A stretch of 64,000 nt of DNA from Alphaproteobacteria bacterium (GTDB taxonomy: Bacteria > Pseudomonadota > Alphaproteobacteria > Sphingomonadales > Kordiimonadaceae). Shown here one piece after another: positions 1 to 8,471 of this stretch; position 1 is the first letter of the stretch; each line of letters starts with the position of its first letter. The stretch spans positions 1-64,000 of the forward strand of contig JAJFIS010000027.1 in assembly GCA_021774735.1 (NCBI GenBank), read 5' to 3'. Under the pieces are notes generated by a model. It made no database searches, was not told the DNA's origin, and was given only the letters and a program-made list of their open reading frames with translations. A program made the translations under genes and the position numbers.

Positions 1-2
1 CA

Positions 3-428
3 ATCAAAGCGGCAGCGCAACGTGCTGTCGTACCCGCTACAAAATGTTCTTGTAATCGTGATCGTTTAGCTTGGCTTAATCTGCTCTTTCTCATACATAC
101 CCCTATAACACAAATTATGCATTATCTGGGTCAGCCCCTAATTTTTTCTCCGGCTGATAATTTTATTTTAATGCGGGATTTCCGTGCCGTTCATATCGCG
201 GATCATGATGCCGCTGCTATCCTTGGAACTATTGAAATAAAAGATAGTTTGTCCGCGATGTGGATGAGCGTTGACGAAAAATGGGTTTATTTGCTGACCG
301 AGGACGGAAAAATTAATAGACATCGGATGGGTAAGTGGGGTCAAGATTTACTTGATCATGTGGATGAAATGCATTTGCCCAAGGTTCATAAGCTACCAGA
401 TAGCGGTGGGGAAGCTCCTGTAAAGTAA
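3..428 (+). CDS. C-terminal part of an unidentified protein, possibly a beta-propeller (5' end outside the window)
   Basis: The reading frame ending at 428 has no stop codon back to base 3, so the gene probably begins left of the window. An internal ATG at 117 would give 103 residues, but no Shine-Dalgarno sequence precedes it. The stretch after it reads like WD40-type propeller blades: FSPADNFILMRD followed by VHIADHD, then SVDEKWVYLLTEDGKI, each a strand-turn-strand with a D-x-x motif. The tail (PKVHKLPDSGGEAPVK) is hydrophilic. Family membership is inferred from the pattern only; no catalytic motif is visible. It lies 159 bases upstream of the TIR gene on the same strand, so it may belong to the same locus. 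The coding status of bases 3-116 is uncertain because its translation is Cys/Arg/Leu-rich and unlike the rest. Confidence 0.5.
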   Translation: MKAAAQRAVVPATKCSCNRDRLAWLNLLFLIHTPITQIMHYLGQPLIFSPADNFILMRDFRAVHIADHDAAAILGTIEIKDSLSAMWMSVDEKWVYLLTEDGKINRHRMGKWGQDLLDHVDEMHLPKVHKLPDSGGEAPVK

Positions 429-587: not shown

Positions 588-1721
588 ATGGGTCAAGCTG
601 TGCAATCTGTTGCTTCAGGGGCGGTGCAAATGATTTTTATTTCTTATTCTACTAAAGACGAAGTGGTGGCGGGCAAGGTATGTGCGGGGCTTGAAGAAAA
701 GGGCCTGAACTGCTGGATAGCGCCGCGTGACATTCCGGCAGGCGGAAGTTATGCAAGCGCTATCATGCGCGGGCTGGCGGAATCTAAGGTCATGGTCATT
801 ATTATAACGGAAGATTCGGTTCTGTCCGAGCATGTAAAGAATGAAGTGGAGCATGCTTTTTCTAGCAAGGTTCCTATAATCCCCATGCGGGTTTCTAATA
901 TTGACCCGGCGGCGCTTGACCCGACTTCGGACATGAAATATTTCCTAAATCGCATGCAATGGTTTGATGCGGCCTCCGGGGACATGAAAGCTCATATCGA
1001 CGGCCTTGCGGGCCAAATTAATGGTCTGTTGAGCGGCCAGCCCGTTCAGCACCAAACTCAGCCGATTAAGCCATCCAAAAAAGTAAAAAATGTCTCGAGC
1101 ATAAAAATACTCGCTGGATTACTTATTGTGACCGCTCTGGCCGTCGGCGCTTATGTTGCGGTGCAGCCAGCCGGCCCCGCCCCGGTTGATTGGCAGAAAT
1201 ATGCAGTGGCGAATGAGCTGAAAATGGCAGTGCCTAACCAGCAAATAGAGGTCACGGTCAAAACATTGCCCGAGCAAGATATTTACCATGAAGGTGATAA
1301 GGTCATTTTGTCGGTTTCGGTTGATAAACCAGCTTGGATCGTGGCGGTTCTATATGTTGGCAGCGATACCAGTATCCTGCTTTACCCCAATGACTTTTCT
1401 GATATGCGGAAATTAGCAGCTGGCGAAACCGTTCAGCTCGGCGCAGAAGGCAGTGGCTTTGACTTTACCATTTCCCCACCCTTTGGCACAGATTTGGTGC
1501 AGGTTATCGCCAGCGACAGAAAAGAAGAATTGATGGCTTTGCTCGGGGACAGCGCGGCCATTGAGGGGACAGTGCTACGTAGTATTACGGCCAAAGCGCT
1601 GCGAGAGACCATCGGCAGAGTTAATTTAAGAAGCATTACAATTGGTGCAAAAGAAACTGAAATTACTGAGGGATGGGGCCATGGCTCCGTCACAATAACA
1701 TCACAAGAAAAAGACGATTAG
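588..1721 (+). CDS. Membrane-anchored TIR domain protein with DUF4384 domain
   Basis: The 377-residue product starts with a TIR domain (about residues 15-145: MIFISYSTKDE, then CWIAPRDIPAG at 42, then SEHVKNEVEHAF). Glu86 in VKNEVE occupies the position of the catalytic glutamate of NADase TIR domains. A single hydrophobic segment (about 172-194, ILAGLLIVTALAVGAYVAV) follows, then a DUF4384-type domain (about 215-335; VILSVSVDKPAWIVAVLYV, ILLYPNDF, GTDLVQVIASDRKEE). The predicted topology puts TIR in the cytoplasm and DUF4384 in the periplasm. ATG 588 was chosen because AAGGA ends 8 bases before it; a TTG at 570 in frame has no such site. The next gene, a giant CHAT protease, starts 36 bases downstream, which suggests cotranscription. 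Bacterial TIR domains often cleave NAD+ or make nucleotide signals; activity here is inferred. Domain calls are from motif reading. Confidence 0.88.
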   Translation: MGQAVQSVASGAVQMIFISYSTKDEVVAGKVCAGLEEKGLNCWIAPRDIPAGGSYASAIMRGLAESKVMVIIITEDSVLSEHVKNEVEHAFSSKVPIIPMRVSNIDPAALDPTSDMKYFLNRMQWFDAASGDMKAHIDGLAGQINGLLSGQPVQHQTQPIKPSKKVKNVSSIKILAGLLIVTALAVGAYVAVQPAGPAPVDWQKYAVANELKMAVPNQQIEVTVKTLPEQDIYHEGDKVILSVSVDKPAWIVAVLYVGSDTSILLYPNDFSDMRKLAAGETVQLGAEGSGFDFTISPPFGTDLVQVIASDRKEELMALLGDSAAIEGTVLRSITAKALRETIGRVNLRSITIGAKETEITEGWGHGSVTITSQEKDD

Positions 1722-1757
1722 ACAGCGTTCAAGCAACCGAGAGAGTAGGAGAGTGAG

Positions 1758-4700
1758 ATGAAACAACTAAATATAATTAGAACAGGGCTTATCTGTTTCA
1801 TTCTGCTGTTTTTACTCTCGCCAGTAATTGCGAGGGCAGATCAAGCTGCATCGATTTATGATGATGAGAGGGTTAGGCAATATGCCAAGCTTTATCAGGA
1901 AAGTAAGGGCGAAAAGCTTGTAAAAACAGCTGTCAAAGACTTGAAAGGAAAAAGCCCACACCCGCTTTCATCGCTGGCATGGCATGAGGTGGCCCAATAT
2001 TTAACCGACGATGATTTCCATGTTTATTGGGATAAGTTAGACGCCAAAACAAAGGAAGCCGTTGGCGCTTACGGCGACATTAAAGCGCTGATGTCCAGAG
2101 GCGAAAAACATGTGGCGTTAGAGCGCTACCAGCCTGATAGCCCGGCGCTGAAGCCCCATGCAGCTAGCTACCAGCAACTGGCAAATATAGCACTGGAATT
2201 TGGTAACCGAGATCTTCAGGTGACTTATTTACTCACAGGCTTGCGGGAGCATCCAAGTTATTTTCAGTTAGCTTGGAATATTGCTTGGATGAATATGAGC
2301 CAAGTTAATCTCTTGCAGGTTACAGATTTTCTGGCCGCAACACCCTCCTTAAAGGGGTCTCCCCTTGAATATCTTATCAAATCACGGGTGAAATATTACC
2401 CCTATTCAGGGGGCAGTTACCGTACGCTAAGGCCTATTGTTGATCATTGGCTGGCGGCATATCCGGATGACGCCCGTGCGCTCACGCTGAAGGGCCGCAT
2501 TTTAGAGGGCTTGAAGTTAAATGATGAAGCCTATCAAGCCTTTAAAAAGTCTTATGAGCTTTCTCCTTATTATAGCAACCGGGTGGATCTGGCAGAAGTG
2601 GCACTTATTTCAGGTCATGAAGCCGAGCTGCGTAATATTTTACGCCCAAGAGCTAATTTATTTTCTAAGGACGCTAAATCAGCCGCAGGATGGCTTGAAG
2701 CGTTTATCGCTGAAGGCTGGAAAAGTGCTCGATATGAGAAGAACGCAGCAGAGGGCTATGAGGCCGCTCTCGCCAACATTGATGATAAAGCATTTGTTTA
2801 TATGAAGCAGGCAAGTTTGGCCCTTGCCCAAGGTCAAAAAGCTAAACGCATTATCCATATCGAAAATGCTTTGAAAGAGCCCGGCGGGGATGAAATTCGC
2901 AATCAAATGATCTATATTAGGGCTTTGCTTGCTGATGGCCGTGTTGATGATGCGCGCGTTCAGCTGGATGCTTACAAGACACGGGTTGCCAAATTTGATA
3001 ATACGACGACATTATTGGCCAGCTCTATTTATGGCAAGATATCCACCGAGCAACAGCAGAATATTTTGCAGGATGCAATGGTGGAAATGCCTAACTCTCC
3101 TGAGCTTCTTTCCTCATATGGCGGCACTTTAAAAGGCACATCACTGCGCGCGATTGAAGAACGCCGTGATATTTTAGCGAAAGCTTTTTACCTTCGGCCA
3201 ACATCGGGCCGGGCGGCAGAATATTATGATGCGGAGGCCGAATATTTAACCCGCAAAAATTCACGCACTTCCAAGGCTCAACTGGAAGAGTTTATGCAAA
3301 ATTTGGCGGAGGCTTTTCCAGAGATTGGCAAAATCCATGATCTTCATTTGACCCTGTTGGGCTATGAAGGGGAACGGAAAGCCAGCTATTGGCATGAACT
3401 TGCGCTTGAATATCCTCAGCACCCATATTTATTCGATCGTTGGATTGCACTGGCAAAAAAGAAACAAGATTGGGCGACCACTTATGCTCAACTTTCTGAG
3501 TTTTCCTTTGTGACAGGCGAGGACCCCGAAAATATTGATGCGGCTTACCGGAATAACATCACCTATGCACGCACTGTAGTTGCAGAGCTGAATACCCGCC
3601 CTGTAGCACAAGAAAAACTAACCACCTTGTTGGATGGCTTGCAAAAGACAAAACTGTACCTTCCGCAATCGTCGTATCAATATTTTTTGCAAAAAATTTA
3701 TGATGCCCTTGGCCGCGAAAATGAAGCCGCCGATGCCTTGATTGCCCAAGGAAAAGTTGATCCCTTTAATACCAGTATTTTCCATGACATGGTGGCGGAT
3801 TATGCCAAAACCCGCGATTTGGGCTGGCAGTTTGGTTTTAATATCATTGATCAACGACCCTATTTTCAAAATGGCCTCGATAATTTTTTGCATAAGCATA
3901 CCATGTGGGGCGGCAGCCCTATTGTTGCACTTTGGGCGATTGAACGCGGCCAAAATAACGGCTTGACGATTAAAGAAAATTATCGCGCTCGGGCCATTGG
4001 CGCGCTCGGCGACCCTGTGACCGATTATGTTAGTCATTACGGCGGTAAAAATGCTTCGGTTGGCAGCAGCGCACTTTATATGAGCTGGTATGACAGTAAG
4101 GTGGATAAGGTTATTGGCGGCTCGCGCAGTCATTTTGTTTATAACTTCACCGATACCACCGCAGCAGTTGAAATTCACAAAGCTAACGGCGAAGTATTCA
4201 CCCGAGAGGACAGTCTGATATTTGGCAAGCCAATCCGGATGTCCAAGCAGGCAATAAGCTATGAAATTAAATATACAGACAGGGGGTCGTTTAAAGGCGT
4301 GGCTGACCGCGATGGTGATATAATAAGCCTAGATTATAATGCTAAGAACGAGATCATACGCTTTGCCTCTCGCGGTAAGCCAACGCTGGACTTTGAGTAT
4401 AATGAAATTGGCAAGCCCATATTGATCAAGGCTGGGGAAACCGGTGAAGTTCATGTTGAATATGATGAACAGGGCAACATTTTAAAAGTAAGCTCTCCGC
4501 AGGGTCACCAGGCCAGCCTTGTAATCACCCAGCGCTTTCAAAGCCTTTTATCGATTTCTAAAAAAATTGGTCAGGCAACCCAACGGTTGGATATTCCCGA
4601 TATTGGCCTTGGTAATAAAGATCAAAAGCATGATGATCTCTATTCGGCTTATACTGAAATTTCTTATGAAATAGAGTATGACAAACTGCTGAAGAGCAAA

Positions 4701-7700
4701 GCCTACACCAAGGCAGCAGCGTCTTTGATGGAGCACCTTAGGGCTAATATTAATTTTGACGCTAATTATTTGGGGGAAGCGTTAGATGTGGCCCAGAATA
4801 TTGTGTCGGTTGGTTTTGCCCCTGAGCAGAAATCCGAGAAAATTCTTAAAGTTTCCGCCCAATATTTACTGCATTGGAAAGAATTGAAATTGCTGCAGAA
4901 GCCTGATGGCTTGCCCACAAGTGATTATCTTTGGTGGGTGGATCAATATGATCGCTTGGCTAAGATTGCTGCGGTATCAAACGATGCAGCCTTTGGCAAA
5001 ATTCTCAGTAAATTGACGGACGGTGGCATGTCGTTGCTGGAGCATGAACGCTGGTTGCCAAAGCATGATCTGGTTAATGCCGCCCATTGGCAGCATCATG
5101 CCCTTGGTTTACTTCTGTCTGAAAAGCTCAGTGACGCTCAAATAAATGATAGCGTTACCCTGCAAAATGGCATGACTTTGGTTGCTACCTCAAAAGGTCT
5201 AATCATCGGCGCTAAAGGTCATTGGCGGTGGATGGGTTATGACCGCGCGCTTGGTAAATGGTCTCAGTCGGCGGATAAGTTCCGTCTTTCTTTGAAATCT
5301 AACCTATCTAGCATTGTGGTTGACGGCGAAGGTAATATCTGGTTGGGCAGCGCTGGCGGTATTATGGTGCTTGATCGGGAACTCACCAAAACAGTCGCCC
5401 GTTTTGAAACCAAAGACCATGGTCTGAACAGCCCTGCGGTGACAGATCTAACAAATATTAGTGGCACTATCTATGTATCCACCCTGCGCGGGCTTAGCAC
5501 CGGCACCCTTGATAAGGGCCTCGCTTTAATGCCTGCTTTCAAAGGCAAGCGGGTAGAGAAGGTCTTGTCCGCCGATGAAAATGGGGGCCTTATTGTTCAA
5601 GCGAAAGGGATATTGCATTATCTTTCGGCAGCAGGAAAAATAACGACGATCACGGAAAGTCCTGTGGCTGATGTGGCTTGGGCTGATGTTGGTCAAACTT
5701 TGGCATTTTTGTCCAAAGATAACTTATATATGACCAATTTCACAGCGGGTGAAGGCTTTGATGAACCCCGACTTGCAAGCGGCCAGGAAGACATCCGTAA
5801 AAGTAAAGTGGTTCACGGTCTAAAACGTGTCTATTTGCCGGGCGAAGGTTCGCTGCTCGCCATATTAACCGATATGGGTGTTGCCTTTTATACGGGTAAA
5901 CATATTGAGTTTATGGAGCTGCCGCTCAAAGAAAAACGCAATCGCCTAACCCTTGGCCCTGTTCAAGTGAGCGGGAATATGAATGGATTGGTATTTTTCA
6001 CTTCTGAGGGCATCTATAGCTACGGCCAATCAAATGTTCGTTCCTATGCAGGCTTAAAAGCAACAGATTTACTGACCAGTAAAAAATATAAAATGACCTT
6101 TGTCGCAGATGGCAGGCGTTTATATGGCTTCACCCACGGCGAAGATGACCTGTCCACTATTGCAAGGGTAAGTGCCAAATATTTAGCAAATACACAAAGC
6201 GGCGACCTTATCGTCGCGACTAATAATGCGGTCGTGAATGTGGACCCTTTAACGGGTGATGTAAGTGATTTATTTGACCTCCGTCAGCCGGAAATTGATG
6301 ATGAAAATTGGTCGCCGTGGCGCGATGTTACAAGTTTGCTGGTTGATAGCCGAGGGGATATTTGGGCGGCCAAAGGAGCCACTCTTTTCCATTATTCACC
6401 CGAAAAATCAGTAGTTTCTTGGTACAATTTTGCCGAGGACCCCGCACTATTTCCCTCTCGAGCCAATAGCCTTGTCAATATCCATGAACGACCTGATGGC
6501 ATGGTCTATGTGGTGGCCTCCAACAATGCCCATATGAGCTATAAAGGCATGTCGCTCGAGGGCGGCTTATTGCGTTTCAGGGGCGATAAATTTGAGCGCG
6601 TGGACACGAAGCGCTTCACATGGTTTGCGCTGGGCTATACCCAGCTTTCTGCTGGTGAATATATGATAGGAACAGGTAAAAGCATTGTCATTAGGAAGGC
6701 AGGAGACGGAGAACATATTCAGCGCCACGCTGAAGGGGTCAAACAGTTAAAAGCGGATGTCGCAGGTGTATTTTATGTTCGTGACGGTGTAAAATATGAC
6801 GAAGACACCTATTTAGTGCCTACCGCTGGTGGCATTATGATCTACAGCAAAGGGGAATGGTTCCCCGCTGACCATATGAACAGTTTACTGCCGGGCGAAA
6901 GTGAATTTGGACAATATGGTGCGCGCCAAGCAATGGCAGTAGAAACCGATGCAAATGGCACCATCTATGTAGCGTCTAAAATGGGGCTTTCAGTGTTTGA
7001 AATGAGTGGCGGAGCCCAAGCGCTTTTGGCGCAAAATGGCTTCGGTGGGCAAGCTTTCGCCCGCAGCGATGTTCGCACATTGAGTGATTTAAACGATCAA
7101 TTTTTGAATAAAGTTGATAATGCCACTCCCGCAGGCCGATTGCTCGCGCAAATAAAATCAGCGGAGATTGATGTGGTAGAGCTGGAAACAATTTCAGAAT
7201 CTGGTGCCACCCTTGTCAGCCTTCAAGATGTATCCATATCGGCCTCAGATGCCTTGAAGTTGCAACAAGACCGCGACCGGCTAACCAAAGAGTTAACCCG
7301 CAAACGCAAACGGGCGAAAAGCCTTGTCGCACGCTTGGAAAACGAGCATCGGGGCTTGTTTCAAATGTTAAAGCTGGACCCCAATGAGACAGCGTCAATT
7401 TATAAGGAAATGCCGGATAATGCTTTGATCATTCAGTATTTGCCGACACCTGAGACCCTTTATATCCAGCTGACTGATAAGAAAAACGGCCCCCAGGTTG
7501 TGGCGGTTCCAGTGGCGCTTGAACGTTTGACCTCATCAGCGGTGCGGGCAAATGCAGCCCTAAAAAAACGTGCGGAAAACATGCCTTCGCTGCGGAGTAT
7601 TACGGTTACAAAGCAAGAGGCCCAGAAAAAACCTGCTGCGACGGAAGCCCCGGATGCCAAGTCTCTATTTGTTGGTGACCTGGCATGGCTATATGATCAA

Positions 7701-8471
7701 TTGCTCAGGCCTATAGAAGGGCGGCTTGATAATTATGATAATATCTATCTCGTTCCGGTTGGGGCGCTGACCTATGTGCCATTTTCTGCCCTTGTTCGCG
7801 GTGTTGACCCTAAAATAGAATATGCAGTGGAGCGCTATAAATTTAGCACCATCAACAGCCTGTTCCATTTGAATTTGGTGCTCCATAGCGGTGATAGCGG
7901 CGATGACCGCGCCTTGTTAGTTGGCAATGCAGACAAAACCCTTGAATATGCTCAAAAAGAAGTTGAGGAAATTGCTGACTTCTTCGATGATCCCACCCTG
8001 CTTGTAGGGGATAGCGCTGACTATGACACCGTGGTTGATATGATGACCCAACACGGCATCGTACATTTGGCCACCCATGGCTTTTTAGACAGTCAGGAGC
8101 CCAGCAATAGCTACTTGAAGCTTGCAGGTAACAAACGGCTGAATGTCATTGATATTAGCATGCTGAATATGGAAGACGCCCGGGTGGCGGTGCTATCAGC
8201 CTGTGAAACAGGTCTTGGCACAAGCGGTCTTGAATATGCCACCCTTGCGCGGGCTTTTGTCCATGCAAAGGTGCCGTCTATCATAGCCTCGCTTTGGTCG
8301 GTAAATGATGAACCCACCAAAGAATTGATGGTGAATTTCTACCGCCATATGCAAGACGGTGAGACGGTATCAAGTTCGCTCACCGCAGCCCAGCGAGAAA
8401 TGATCGAAGCGGATGGCCCCATGGCTTGGCCGGAAGCATGGTCCGGTATGGTCTTGTTCGGGAAACATTAA
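1758..8471 (+). CDS. Giant exported CHAT (caspase-like) protease with helical repeats, YD-like segment and propeller
   Basis: This 2237-residue protein has an N-terminal signal sequence (ICFILLFLLSPVIARA). Residues about 130-720 look like TPR-type helical repeats (for example ARALTLKGRILEGLKLNDEA). Residues about 850-920 contain YD-repeat-like strands (LDFEYNEIGKPILI, VHVEYDEQGNILKV). Residues about 1130-1750 show two-component-regulator-type propeller blades (VDGEGNIWLGSAGGIMVLD, VDSRGDIWAAKGATLF). A charged coiled-coil segment lies at about 1828-1860. The C-terminal CHAT domain has the catalytic pair His2107 (HLATHGF) and Cys2149 (LSACETGLG), followed by SIIASLWSVNDEPT. ATG 1758 is preceded by AGGAG with a 6-base spacer. 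CHAT proteases in other systems (for example TPR-CHAT bound to Craspase) are cytoplasmic; export here would put the protease in the periplasm. Partner and trigger are unknown; pairing with the TIR gene is inferred from spacing. Confidence 0.88.
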   Translation: MKQLNIIRTGLICFILLFLLSPVIARADQAASIYDDERVRQYAKLYQESKGEKLVKTAVKDLKGKSPHPLSSLAWHEVAQYLTDDDFHVYWDKLDAKTKEAVGAYGDIKALMSRGEKHVALERYQPDSPALKPHAASYQQLANIALEFGNRDLQVTYLLTGLREHPSYFQLAWNIAWMNMSQVNLLQVTDFLAATPSLKGSPLEYLIKSRVKYYPYSGGSYRTLRPIVDHWLAAYPDDARALTLKGRILEGLKLNDEAYQAFKKSYELSPYYSNRVDLAEVALISGHEAELRNILRPRANLFSKDAKSAAGWLEAFIAEGWKSARYEKNAAEGYEAALANIDDKAFVYMKQASLALAQGQKAKRIIHIENALKEPGGDEIRNQMIYIRALLADGRVDDARVQLDAYKTRVAKFDNTTTLLASSIYGKISTEQQQNILQDAMVEMPNSPELLSSYGGTLKGTSLRAIEERRDILAKAFYLRPTSGRAAEYYDAEAEYLTRKNSRTSKAQLEEFMQNLAEAFPEIGKIHDLHLTLLGYEGERKASYWHELALEYPQHPYLFDRWIALAKKKQDWATTYAQLSEFSFVTGEDPENIDAAYRNNITYARTVVAELNTRPVAQEKLTTLLDGLQKTKLYLPQSSYQYFLQKIYDALGRENEAADALIAQGKVDPFNTSIFHDMVADYAKTRDLGWQFGFNIIDQRPYFQNGLDNFLHKHTMWGGSPIVALWAIERGQNNGLTIKENYRARAIGALGDPVTDYVSHYGGKNASVGSSALYMSWYDSKVDKVIGGSRSHFVYNFTDTTAAVEIHKANGEVFTREDSLIFGKPIRMSKQAISYEIKYTDRGSFKGVADRDGDIISLDYNAKNEIIRFASRGKPTLDFEYNEIGKPILIKAGETGEVHVEYDEQGNILKVSSPQGHQASLVITQRFQSLLSISKKIGQATQRLDIPDIGLGNKDQKHDDLYSAYTEISYEIEYDKLLKSKAYTKAAASLMEHLRANINFDANYLGEALDVAQNIVSVGFAPEQKSEKILKVSAQYLLHWKELKLLQKPDGLPTSDYLWWVDQYDRLAKIAAVSNDAAFGKILSKLTDGGMSLLEHERWLPKHDLVNAAHWQHHALGLLLSEKLSDAQINDSVTLQNGMTLVATSKGLIIGAKGHWRWMGYDRALGKWSQSADKFRLSLKSNLSSIVVDGEGNIWLGSAGGIMVLDRELTKTVARFETKDHGLNSPAVTDLTNISGTIYVSTLRGLSTGTLDKGLALMPAFKGKRVEKVLSADENGGLIVQAKGILHYLSAAGKITTITESPVADVAWADVGQTLAFLSKDNLYMTNFTAGEGFDEPRLASGQEDIRKSKVVHGLKRVYLPGEGSLLAILTDMGVAFYTGKHIEFMELPLKEKRNRLTLGPVQVSGNMNGLVFFTSEGIYSYGQSNVRSYAGLKATDLLTSKKYKMTFVADGRRLYGFTHGEDDLSTIARVSAKYLANTQSGDLIVATNNAVVNVDPLTGDVSDLFDLRQPEIDDENWSPWRDVTSLLVDSRGDIWAAKGATLFHYSPEKSVVSWYNFAEDPALFPSRANSLVNIHERPDGMVYVVASNNAHMSYKGMSLEGGLLRFRGDKFERVDTKRFTWFALGYTQLSAGEYMIGTGKSIVIRKAGDGEHIQRHAEGVKQLKADVAGVFYVRDGVKYDEDTYLVPTAGGIMIYSKGEWFPADHMNSLLPGESEFGQYGARQAMAVETDANGTIYVASKMGLSVFEMSGGAQALLAQNGFGGQAFARSDVRTLSDLNDQFLNKVDNATPAGRLLAQIKSAEIDVVELETISESGATLVSLQDVSISASDALKLQQDRDRLTKELTRKRKRAKSLVARLENEHRGLFQMLKLDPNETASIYKEMPDNALIIQYLPTPETLYIQLTDKKNGPQVVAVPVALERLTSSAVRANAALKKRAENMPSLRSITVTKQEAQKKPAATEAPDAKSLFVGDLAWLYDQLLRPIEGRLDNYDNIYLVPVGALTYVPFSALVRGVDPKIEYAVERYKFSTINSLFHLNLVLHSGDSGDDRALLVGNADKTLEYAQKEVEEIADFFDDPTLLVGDSADYDTVVDMMTQHGIVHLATHGFLDSQEPSNSYLKLAGNKRLNVIDISMLNMEDARVAVLSACETGLGTSGLEYATLARAFVHAKVPSIIASLWSVNDEPTKELMVNFYRHMQDGETVSSSLTAAQREMIEADGPMAWPEAWSGMVLFGKH

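What the first reader, a model, noticed from the sequence alone, without database searches (positions are those of the whole stretch)
588..8471. TIR-DUF4384 and exported CHAT protease pair as a possible envelope-spanning death or defence module
A membrane TIR protein with a periplasmic DUF4384 domain is followed 36 bases later by a giant exported CHAT protease with intact His2107 and Cys2149. TIR NADases and CHAT caspase-like proteases each act in known defence or cell-death systems, but I know of no described pairing across the inner membrane. A hypothesis is that proteolysis or binding outside is sensed by DUF4384 and relayed to a cytoplasmic TIR NADase.
Basis: partly seen in the sequence, partly recalled or inferred. 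Interest (0 to 1): 0.78.

Follow-up and report, generated by a model that had tools for sequence, protein, structure and literature searches.

The report
Envelope-spanning TIR receptor with CHAT protease
Two neighbouring bacterial genes look like the two halves of a signalling device across the inner membrane, an immune-type TIR domain inside joined to a sensor domain outside and an exported caspase-like protease, and they appear to be a TIR-headed version of a recurring module that elsewhere carries a protein kinase instead.

Summary
Window 588-1721 encodes TIR-TM-DUF4384 (TIR inside, DUF4384 in the periplasm). Thirty-six bases on, 1758-8471 encodes a 2,237-residue exported protein ending in CHAT, with E86, H2107 and C2149 in place.

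The interpretation needs recasting. TIR+CHAT is not the recurring unit: TIR-DUF4384 was found nowhere else searched. DUF4384+CHAT is: the two lie within 10 kb in 8-9 of 397 other genomes, against at most 1.6 expected. The closest parallels have the window's layout with a Ser/Thr kinase in place of TIR: kinase-TM-DUF4384 followed by an exported CHAT (G249, twice in G475, and a secretion operon in G121). One distant genome holds a near-full-length homologue of the giant CHAT (29% over 2,250 residues) beside exported caspases and sigma/anti-sigma-like genes. A solved CHAT protein, DdvA, is itself a transmembrane anti-sigma factor.

Best reading: an envelope-spanning signalling module in which exported CHAT works with a periplasmic Ig-like DUF4384 and the cytoplasmic output domain is interchangeable, here TIR. 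NAD+ hydrolysis and signalling direction are inferred. A dedicated defence or death role is unsupported: the flanks are an insertion sequence, an antiporter and capsule genes.

The parts
588..1721 (+). TIR-TM-DUF4384 protein, 377 aa
   Evidence: Pfam TIR_2 and DUF4384 over their cut-offs, one TM segment with positive-inside charge, ribosome-binding site AAAAGGA
633..980 (+). TIR domain (residues 16-131); putative catalytic Glu86 at 843-845
   Evidence: E86 invariant in 17 aligned TIRs
1107..1163 (+). single transmembrane segment (about residues 174-192)
   Evidence: hydropathy 2.48 over 19 residues; 5 K/R before, 1 after
1284..1520 (+). periplasmic DUF4384 domain (residues 233-311), modelled as an Ig-like beta sandwich
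1722..1757 (+). 36-base gap holding the ribosome-binding site of the CHAT gene
1758..8471 (+). giant exported TPR/propeller/CHAT protein, 2,237 aa
   Evidence: near-full-length homologue G113:C25:78320-86881
1758..1841 (+). signal peptide (about residues 1-28)
   Evidence: sequence shows MKQLNIIRTGLICFILLFLLSPVIARADQ; only strongly hydrophobic segment of the protein
5304..5354 (+). propeller-type (Reg_prop) repeat match, part of a likely beta-propeller region
   Evidence: Pfam PF07494 E 9.6e-5; the G113 homologue matches the same family at 5e-11
7680..8462 (+). CHAT protease domain (residues 1975-2235); His2107 at 8076-8078, Cys2149 at 8202-8204
   Evidence: Pfam E 6e-53; dyad invariant in 44 CHATs; model matches Csx29, separase and DdvA
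1..138 (-). end of a multi-copy insertion element (context, not part of the pair)
   Evidence: identical 138-140 bases at other contig ends; transposase-like start

Best explanation
An envelope-spanning signalling pair. The TIR protein is a single-pass receptor: TIR in the cytoplasm and an Ig-like DUF4384 domain in the periplasm. The second gene makes a giant exported CHAT cysteine protease whose TPR and propeller parts probably sense or scaffold something in the envelope. The most likely course of events (inferred) is that the exported CHAT protein, when triggered, binds or cleaves the DUF4384 ectodomain or a shared periplasmic target; that changes the oligomeric state of the receptor and switches the TIR domain on, giving NAD+ cleavage, a nucleotide signal, or recruitment of TIR partners. 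It is a TIR-headed version of a recurring unit (cytoplasmic transducer - TM - DUF4384, with an exported CHAT) that elsewhere carries a Ser/Thr kinase. Shown here: domain content, topology by sequence, gene linkage, recurrence of DUF4384-CHAT, exchange of TIR for kinase. Inferred: physical contact, protease activity, direction of signalling, TIR output.
For: Same strand and 36-base gap. DUF4384 and CHAT within 10 kb in 8-9 other genomes, expected at most 1.56. Same layout with kinase in place of TIR: G249 (gap 58), G475 twice, G121. 10 of 11 kinase-DUF4384 proteins have a hydrophobic segment between the two domains. DUF4384-linked CHATs lie on several branches of a CHAT tree, the window's on another. 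Active-site residues intact. Homologous giant CHAT beside exported caspases, a weak zf-HC2 membrane protein and a sigma70-like gene in G113. DdvA, a CHAT protein, is a transmembrane anti-sigma factor and keeps the His and Cys motifs.
Against: TIR-DUF4384 was found in one genome only, so the TIR version itself has no comparative support. No contact or activity was tested. The co-location statistic is crude and weaker by family (P about 0.005). The giant CHAT homologue in G113 is not next to a clear DUF4384 gene: nearby matches are marginal.
Confidence: 0.58

Rival explanations
1. A dedicated anti-phage or cell-death module: periplasmic proteolysis triggers the TIR NADase, which depletes NAD+ and kills the cell.
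For: TIR and caspase-like proteases act together in type IV Thoeris (PMC12847820); the nearest solved TIR by sequence is Cat1, an NAD+-degrading CRISPR effector; catalytic residues intact. DdvS, the sigma factor held by the CHAT protein DdvA, controls an anti-phage island in Myxococcus (PMC12288465).
Against: No defence genes among the neighbours scanned; only weak TIR hits in PADLOC; not in phage or viral collections; related loci carry kinases, sigma/anti-sigma-like genes or secretion genes.
Confidence: 0.14
2. DUF4384 is a membrane-anchored docking site or substrate for the exported CHAT, and signalling runs from inside to outside: the cytoplasmic TIR or kinase controls periplasmic CHAT activity, for example in surface-protein processing.
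For: Exported DUF4384 without any cytoplasmic domain also sits beside CHAT (G151, G146), and two related operons carry a two-partner-secretion system. Downstream of the window pair are capsule genes.
Against: Nothing shown here tests direction; TIR domains are not known to me to drive a conformational change outward.
Confidence: 0.2
3. The TIR domain is a non-catalytic scaffold that recruits other TIR proteins; the genome has a second TIR gene on another contig.
For: Second TIR protein, 42% identical, on contig C43 beside a small membrane protein gene. E86 alone does not prove catalysis, since it is invariant across the diverse TIRs aligned.
Against: No sign of active-site loss; most bacterial TIRs studied are NAD+ enzymes (general knowledge).
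Confidence: 0.15
4. The two genes are neighbours by accident, brought together near an insertion element, and do not work together.
For: The pair is confined to this genome among 100 relatives and lies next to an insertion element.
Against: Same strand, 36-base gap, matching compartments for DUF4384 and CHAT, and recurrence of the same layout with kinases.
Confidence: 0.07

Closest known systems
Kinase-TM-DUF4384 + exported CHAT pairs (G249, G475, G121; undescribed in the library searched)
   Same: Same order of parts: cytoplasmic enzyme, one TM segment, periplasmic DUF4384, then a signal-peptide CHAT protein on the same strand.
   Different: Ser/Thr kinase instead of TIR; CHAT proteins of about 760-1,100 aa, on other CHAT branches.
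DdvA/DdvS of Myxococcus xanthus (transmembrane anti-sigma factor with a CHAT domain, PDB 8rot/8rw5)
   Same: A CHAT domain in a membrane-spanning signalling protein; the His and Cys motifs are kept.
   Different: CHAT fused to an anti-sigma factor in one chain; output is a sigma factor, not TIR; no DUF4384 tested.
Type IV Thoeris (TIR + caspase-like protease)
   Same: A TIR gene and a caspase-family protease gene side by side (PMC12847820).
   Different: There both act in the cytoplasm through a nucleotide signal; here the protease is exported and the TIR is membrane-bound.
Csx29/Craspase TPR-CHAT proteases
   Same: CHAT fold with TPR repeats; best structural match of the CHAT model.
   Different: Cytoplasmic, CRISPR-bound; no signal peptide, no TIR, no DUF4384.
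YARHG domain proteins
   Same: An extracytoplasmic domain found with membrane Ser/Thr kinases and with secreted caspase-like proteases (PMC3355149), a partner set like that of DUF4384.
   Different: Predicted to be all-helical, not a beta sandwich; I read only passages of the paper, on kinases and peptidases.

Membership tests
Transducer-TM-DUF4384 + exported CHAT module (grouping made here) | DUF4384 on the outer side of a single-pass protein with a cytoplasmic enzyme domain | tested here: met
   TIR 16-131, TM 174-192, DUF4384 233-311, positive-inside charge
Transducer-TM-DUF4384 + exported CHAT module (grouping made here) | adjacent same-strand CHAT gene with a signal peptide | tested here: met
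   36-base gap; signal-peptide-like N-terminus
Transducer-TM-DUF4384 + exported CHAT module (grouping made here) | physical or functional coupling of DUF4384 and CHAT | not testable with these tools
   no complex prediction or assay available
CHAT peptidase family (PF12770) | domain match over the curated cut-off and His/Cys dyad | tested here: met
   180.6 bits against a cut-off of 24; H2107 and C2149
TIR NADases | TIR fold with catalytic glutamate | tested here: met
   TIR_2 E 8e-21; E86 aligned and invariant
TIR NADases | NAD+ hydrolysis | not testable with these tools
   needs a biochemical assay
Thoeris (including type IV) | match to Thoeris protein models over cut-off | tested here: not met
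   ThsB/ThcB4 models match only part of the TIR domain, below cut-off where one is given (ThsB_TIR 18.2 of 21.2 bits; ThcB4 22.8 of 220)
Thoeris (including type IV) | cytoplasmic effector protease activated by the TIR product | tested here: not met
   the protease gene encodes a signal peptide; location itself is predicted, not measured
Anti-phage defence island | known defence genes close by | tested here: not met
   neighbours scanned with Pfam or PADLOC show metabolism, capsule, transport and signalling; only one side can be read because the contig starts at window 1

The most novel reading that the evidence does not exclude
A bacterial receptor with an outside Ig-like domain, one membrane pass and an inside TIR, switched by an exported caspase-like protease. 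It would resemble, by convergence, the animal Toll and IL-1 receptor layout with protease-triggered activation, and would pass a periplasmic proteolytic event to an NAD+-based signal inside the cell.
Probability: 0.25. Interest if true: 0.88.

Novelty: new variant of a known kind. Interest (0 to 1): 0.62.

Why it matters
Bacterial TIR domains are mostly studied as cytoplasmic immune enzymes; a TIR placed behind a periplasmic sensor and paired with an exported caspase-like protease would link envelope events to NAD+-based signalling. More broadly, the comparison identifies DUF4384 (no known function) as an extracytoplasmic module that recurs beside exported CHAT, on exported caspases, on membrane kinases and here on a TIR, so its role becomes directly testable. 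Only 5 papers in the library name DUF4384; the two read list it as an accessory domain of cyanobacterial orthocaspases.

Tried and rejected
TIR+CHAT as a conserved pair: not found in 100 relatives, 398 phylum genomes or the genome-contig scan, nor TIR-DUF4384 in 205 class genomes searched for DUF4384. Phage or viral origin: no relative in viral contigs; the CHAT protein has none in phage records. Plasmid relatives: TIR-only or CHAT-only matches. Conservation of the giant CHAT among 13 relatives of G113: only partial matches, to CHAT or to the repeat regions. DUF4384 function from its fold: only a common Ig-like sandwich (best Z 8.0, with complement, alpha-2-macroglobulin and many others), so no function drawn. 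DUF4384-like domains in the G113 exported caspases: marginal scores only, not claimed as members. Promoter and terminator scans: promoter-like sites at the number expected by chance, no terminator-like site reported between the genes. Greedy ORF calling went wrong in high-G+C loci and was replaced by domain-first calling. A DUF4384-CHAT complex model was not attempted (single-chain tool, length limit, no deep alignment for the first 1,800 residues of the CHAT protein).

Full report
OBSERVATION. The two genes are as described. 588-1721 encodes TIR_2 (16-131), one hydrophobic segment (about 174-192; 5 K/R in the 15 residues before it, 1 after, so the N-terminus is inside) and DUF4384 (233-311). 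1758-8471 encodes a 2,237-aa protein with a signal peptide, TPR matches, weak YD/RHS and propeller matches, and CHAT at 1975-2235. The gap is 36 bases, and both genes have ribosome-binding sites. E86 is invariant in 17 TIRs; H2107 and C2149 in 44 CHATs. The CHAT model (mean pLDDT 89) matches Csx29/Craspase, separase and the transmembrane anti-sigma factor DdvA.

SURROUNDINGS. Window 1-138 is the end of a multi-copy insertion element, identical at other contig ends, with a transposase-like start MRKSRLSQAKRSRLQEHFVAGTTARCAAALI on the minus strand (IS1595-like from memory). The ORF at 117-428 starts inside the element, so it is probably the remnant of an interrupted gene. Downstream are an NhaC-type antiporter, an alkyl sulfatase, KDO and capsule genes, and further on a polysaccharide export protein, a histidine kinase, a chemoreceptor-domain protein, a TonB receptor and M14 carboxypeptidases. 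Ten window proteins scanned with PADLOC gave matches for one only, the histidine kinase, which is what its kinase domains would give.

DISTRIBUTION. In 100 relatives there is no orthologue of either protein. In 398 phylum genomes the TIR protein finds TIR domains only, several of them followed by a TM segment. In 385 class genomes the CHAT protein finds only CHAT domains at the threshold used. A scan of genome contigs found one TIR relative, in a Methanobrevibacter MAG. DUF4384 in 205 class genomes never came with TIR outside this genome.

WHAT DUF4384 DOES ELSEWHERE. DUF4384 occurs in 52 of 398 phylum genomes and CHAT in 112. Of 78 distinct DUF4384 proteins examined, 65 have a hydrophobic segment before the domain; partners detected by home-made profiles are caspase 12, kinase 11, trypsin 6, trypsin+caspase 1 and TIR 1, and 47 have none of these. 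In 10 of 11 kinase fusions a hydrophobic segment lies between kinase and DUF4384. The domain is therefore mostly extracytoplasmic. The model is a confident Ig-like sandwich in its core.

DUF4384 AND CHAT. The two lie within 10 kb in nine other genomes (eight without the weak, convergent G180 case), against at most 1.56 expected from genome sizes and counts (P 4e-5 to 2e-4; 0.005 by family). The calculation ignores contig breaks, which lower the real expectation, and relatedness, which makes the cases less independent. The arrangements are instructive. G249 has kinase-TM-DUF4384, then a 57-58 base gap, then an exported TPR-CHAT; G475 has two such pairs; G121 has a two-partner-secretion operon with an exported CHAT and kinase-TM-DUF4384; G236 has a similar gene order with caspase-DUF4384; G151 has exported DUF4384 beside exported CHAT (gap 21); G336 and G155 have caspase-DUF4384 beside lipoprotein-like CHATs. 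On a CHAT tree these CHATs fall on several separate branches, and the window CHAT is on another. The cytoplasmic head (TIR, kinase or none) changes while DUF4384 and exported CHAT stay.

THE GIANT CHAT. G113:C25 encodes a 2,854-aa exported protein that aligns with the window protein from residue 33 to 2236 at 28.7% identity, with ankyrin repeats added at its N-terminus. The same strand also carries two exported caspases and a protein with a weak zf-HC2 match and a hydrophobic segment; a sigma70-like gene is divergent. This resembles DdvA, where CHAT is part of a transmembrane anti-sigma factor. DdvA's sigma factor controls an anti-phage island in Myxococcus (PMC12288465).

MECHANISM. Best supported: a membrane-spanning signalling pair in which DUF4384 and CHAT meet in the periplasm and TIR is the interchangeable cytoplasmic output. 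Shown: domains, topology by sequence, linkage, exchange of heads. Inferred: contact, proteolysis, direction, NAD+ chemistry. A defence role is possible through regulation, as for DdvS, but nothing at this locus shows it. The resemblance to Toll/IL-1 receptors is an analogy only.

NOVELTY. CHAT in envelope signalling is known (DdvA), and TIR with caspase-like proteases is known (type IV Thoeris, PMC12847820). In the library only five papers name DUF4384; the two read treat it as an orthocaspase accessory domain, and one search for CHAT with two-partner secretion found nothing. The TIR-headed pair is a new variant, and the DUF4384-CHAT unit appears undescribed in this library, which does not hold most subscription papers.

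Noticed in passing
L010 1369-1920 and 814-1338 (minus strand; G000:C43 near 24,400): A second TIR gene in the same genome (42% identical TIR, no TM of its own) followed about 30 bases on by a small membrane-protein gene.
   Followed up: no
window 1-428: Contig starts inside a multi-copy insertion element that ends at 138; ORF 117-428 begins in the element and continues into what is probably the 3' part of an interrupted gene.
   Followed up: partly
L224 and L170 (G113:C25 62000-97900): A dense cluster of four exported caspase-domain proteins, one with an added DUF900 alpha/beta hydrolase, around the giant CHAT, a weak zf-HC2 membrane protein and a sigma70-like gene.
   Followed up: partly
L168 2027-12761 and L169 1304-13942 (G236, G121): Operons with an exported CHAT, a large exoprotein gene and a DUF4384 protein headed by caspase (G236) or kinase (G121); in G121 the exoprotein and transporter match two-partner-secretion families.
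   Followed up: partly
L172, L173, L178, L179, L180, L182: A family of exported CHAT proteins of about 2,560-2,640 aa, each preceded by a gene of about 190-200 aa in most of these loci; one such small protein matches DUF1318.
   Followed up: no
L002 9962-11845: Two tandem TIR-TM proteins in a Methanobrevibacter MAG, beside large surface-type protein genes.
   Followed up: no
L099/L175 (G336) and L085 (G141): Loci with several DUF4384 proteins close together, including DUF4384 on a trypsin-like and on caspase proteins.
   Followed up: no
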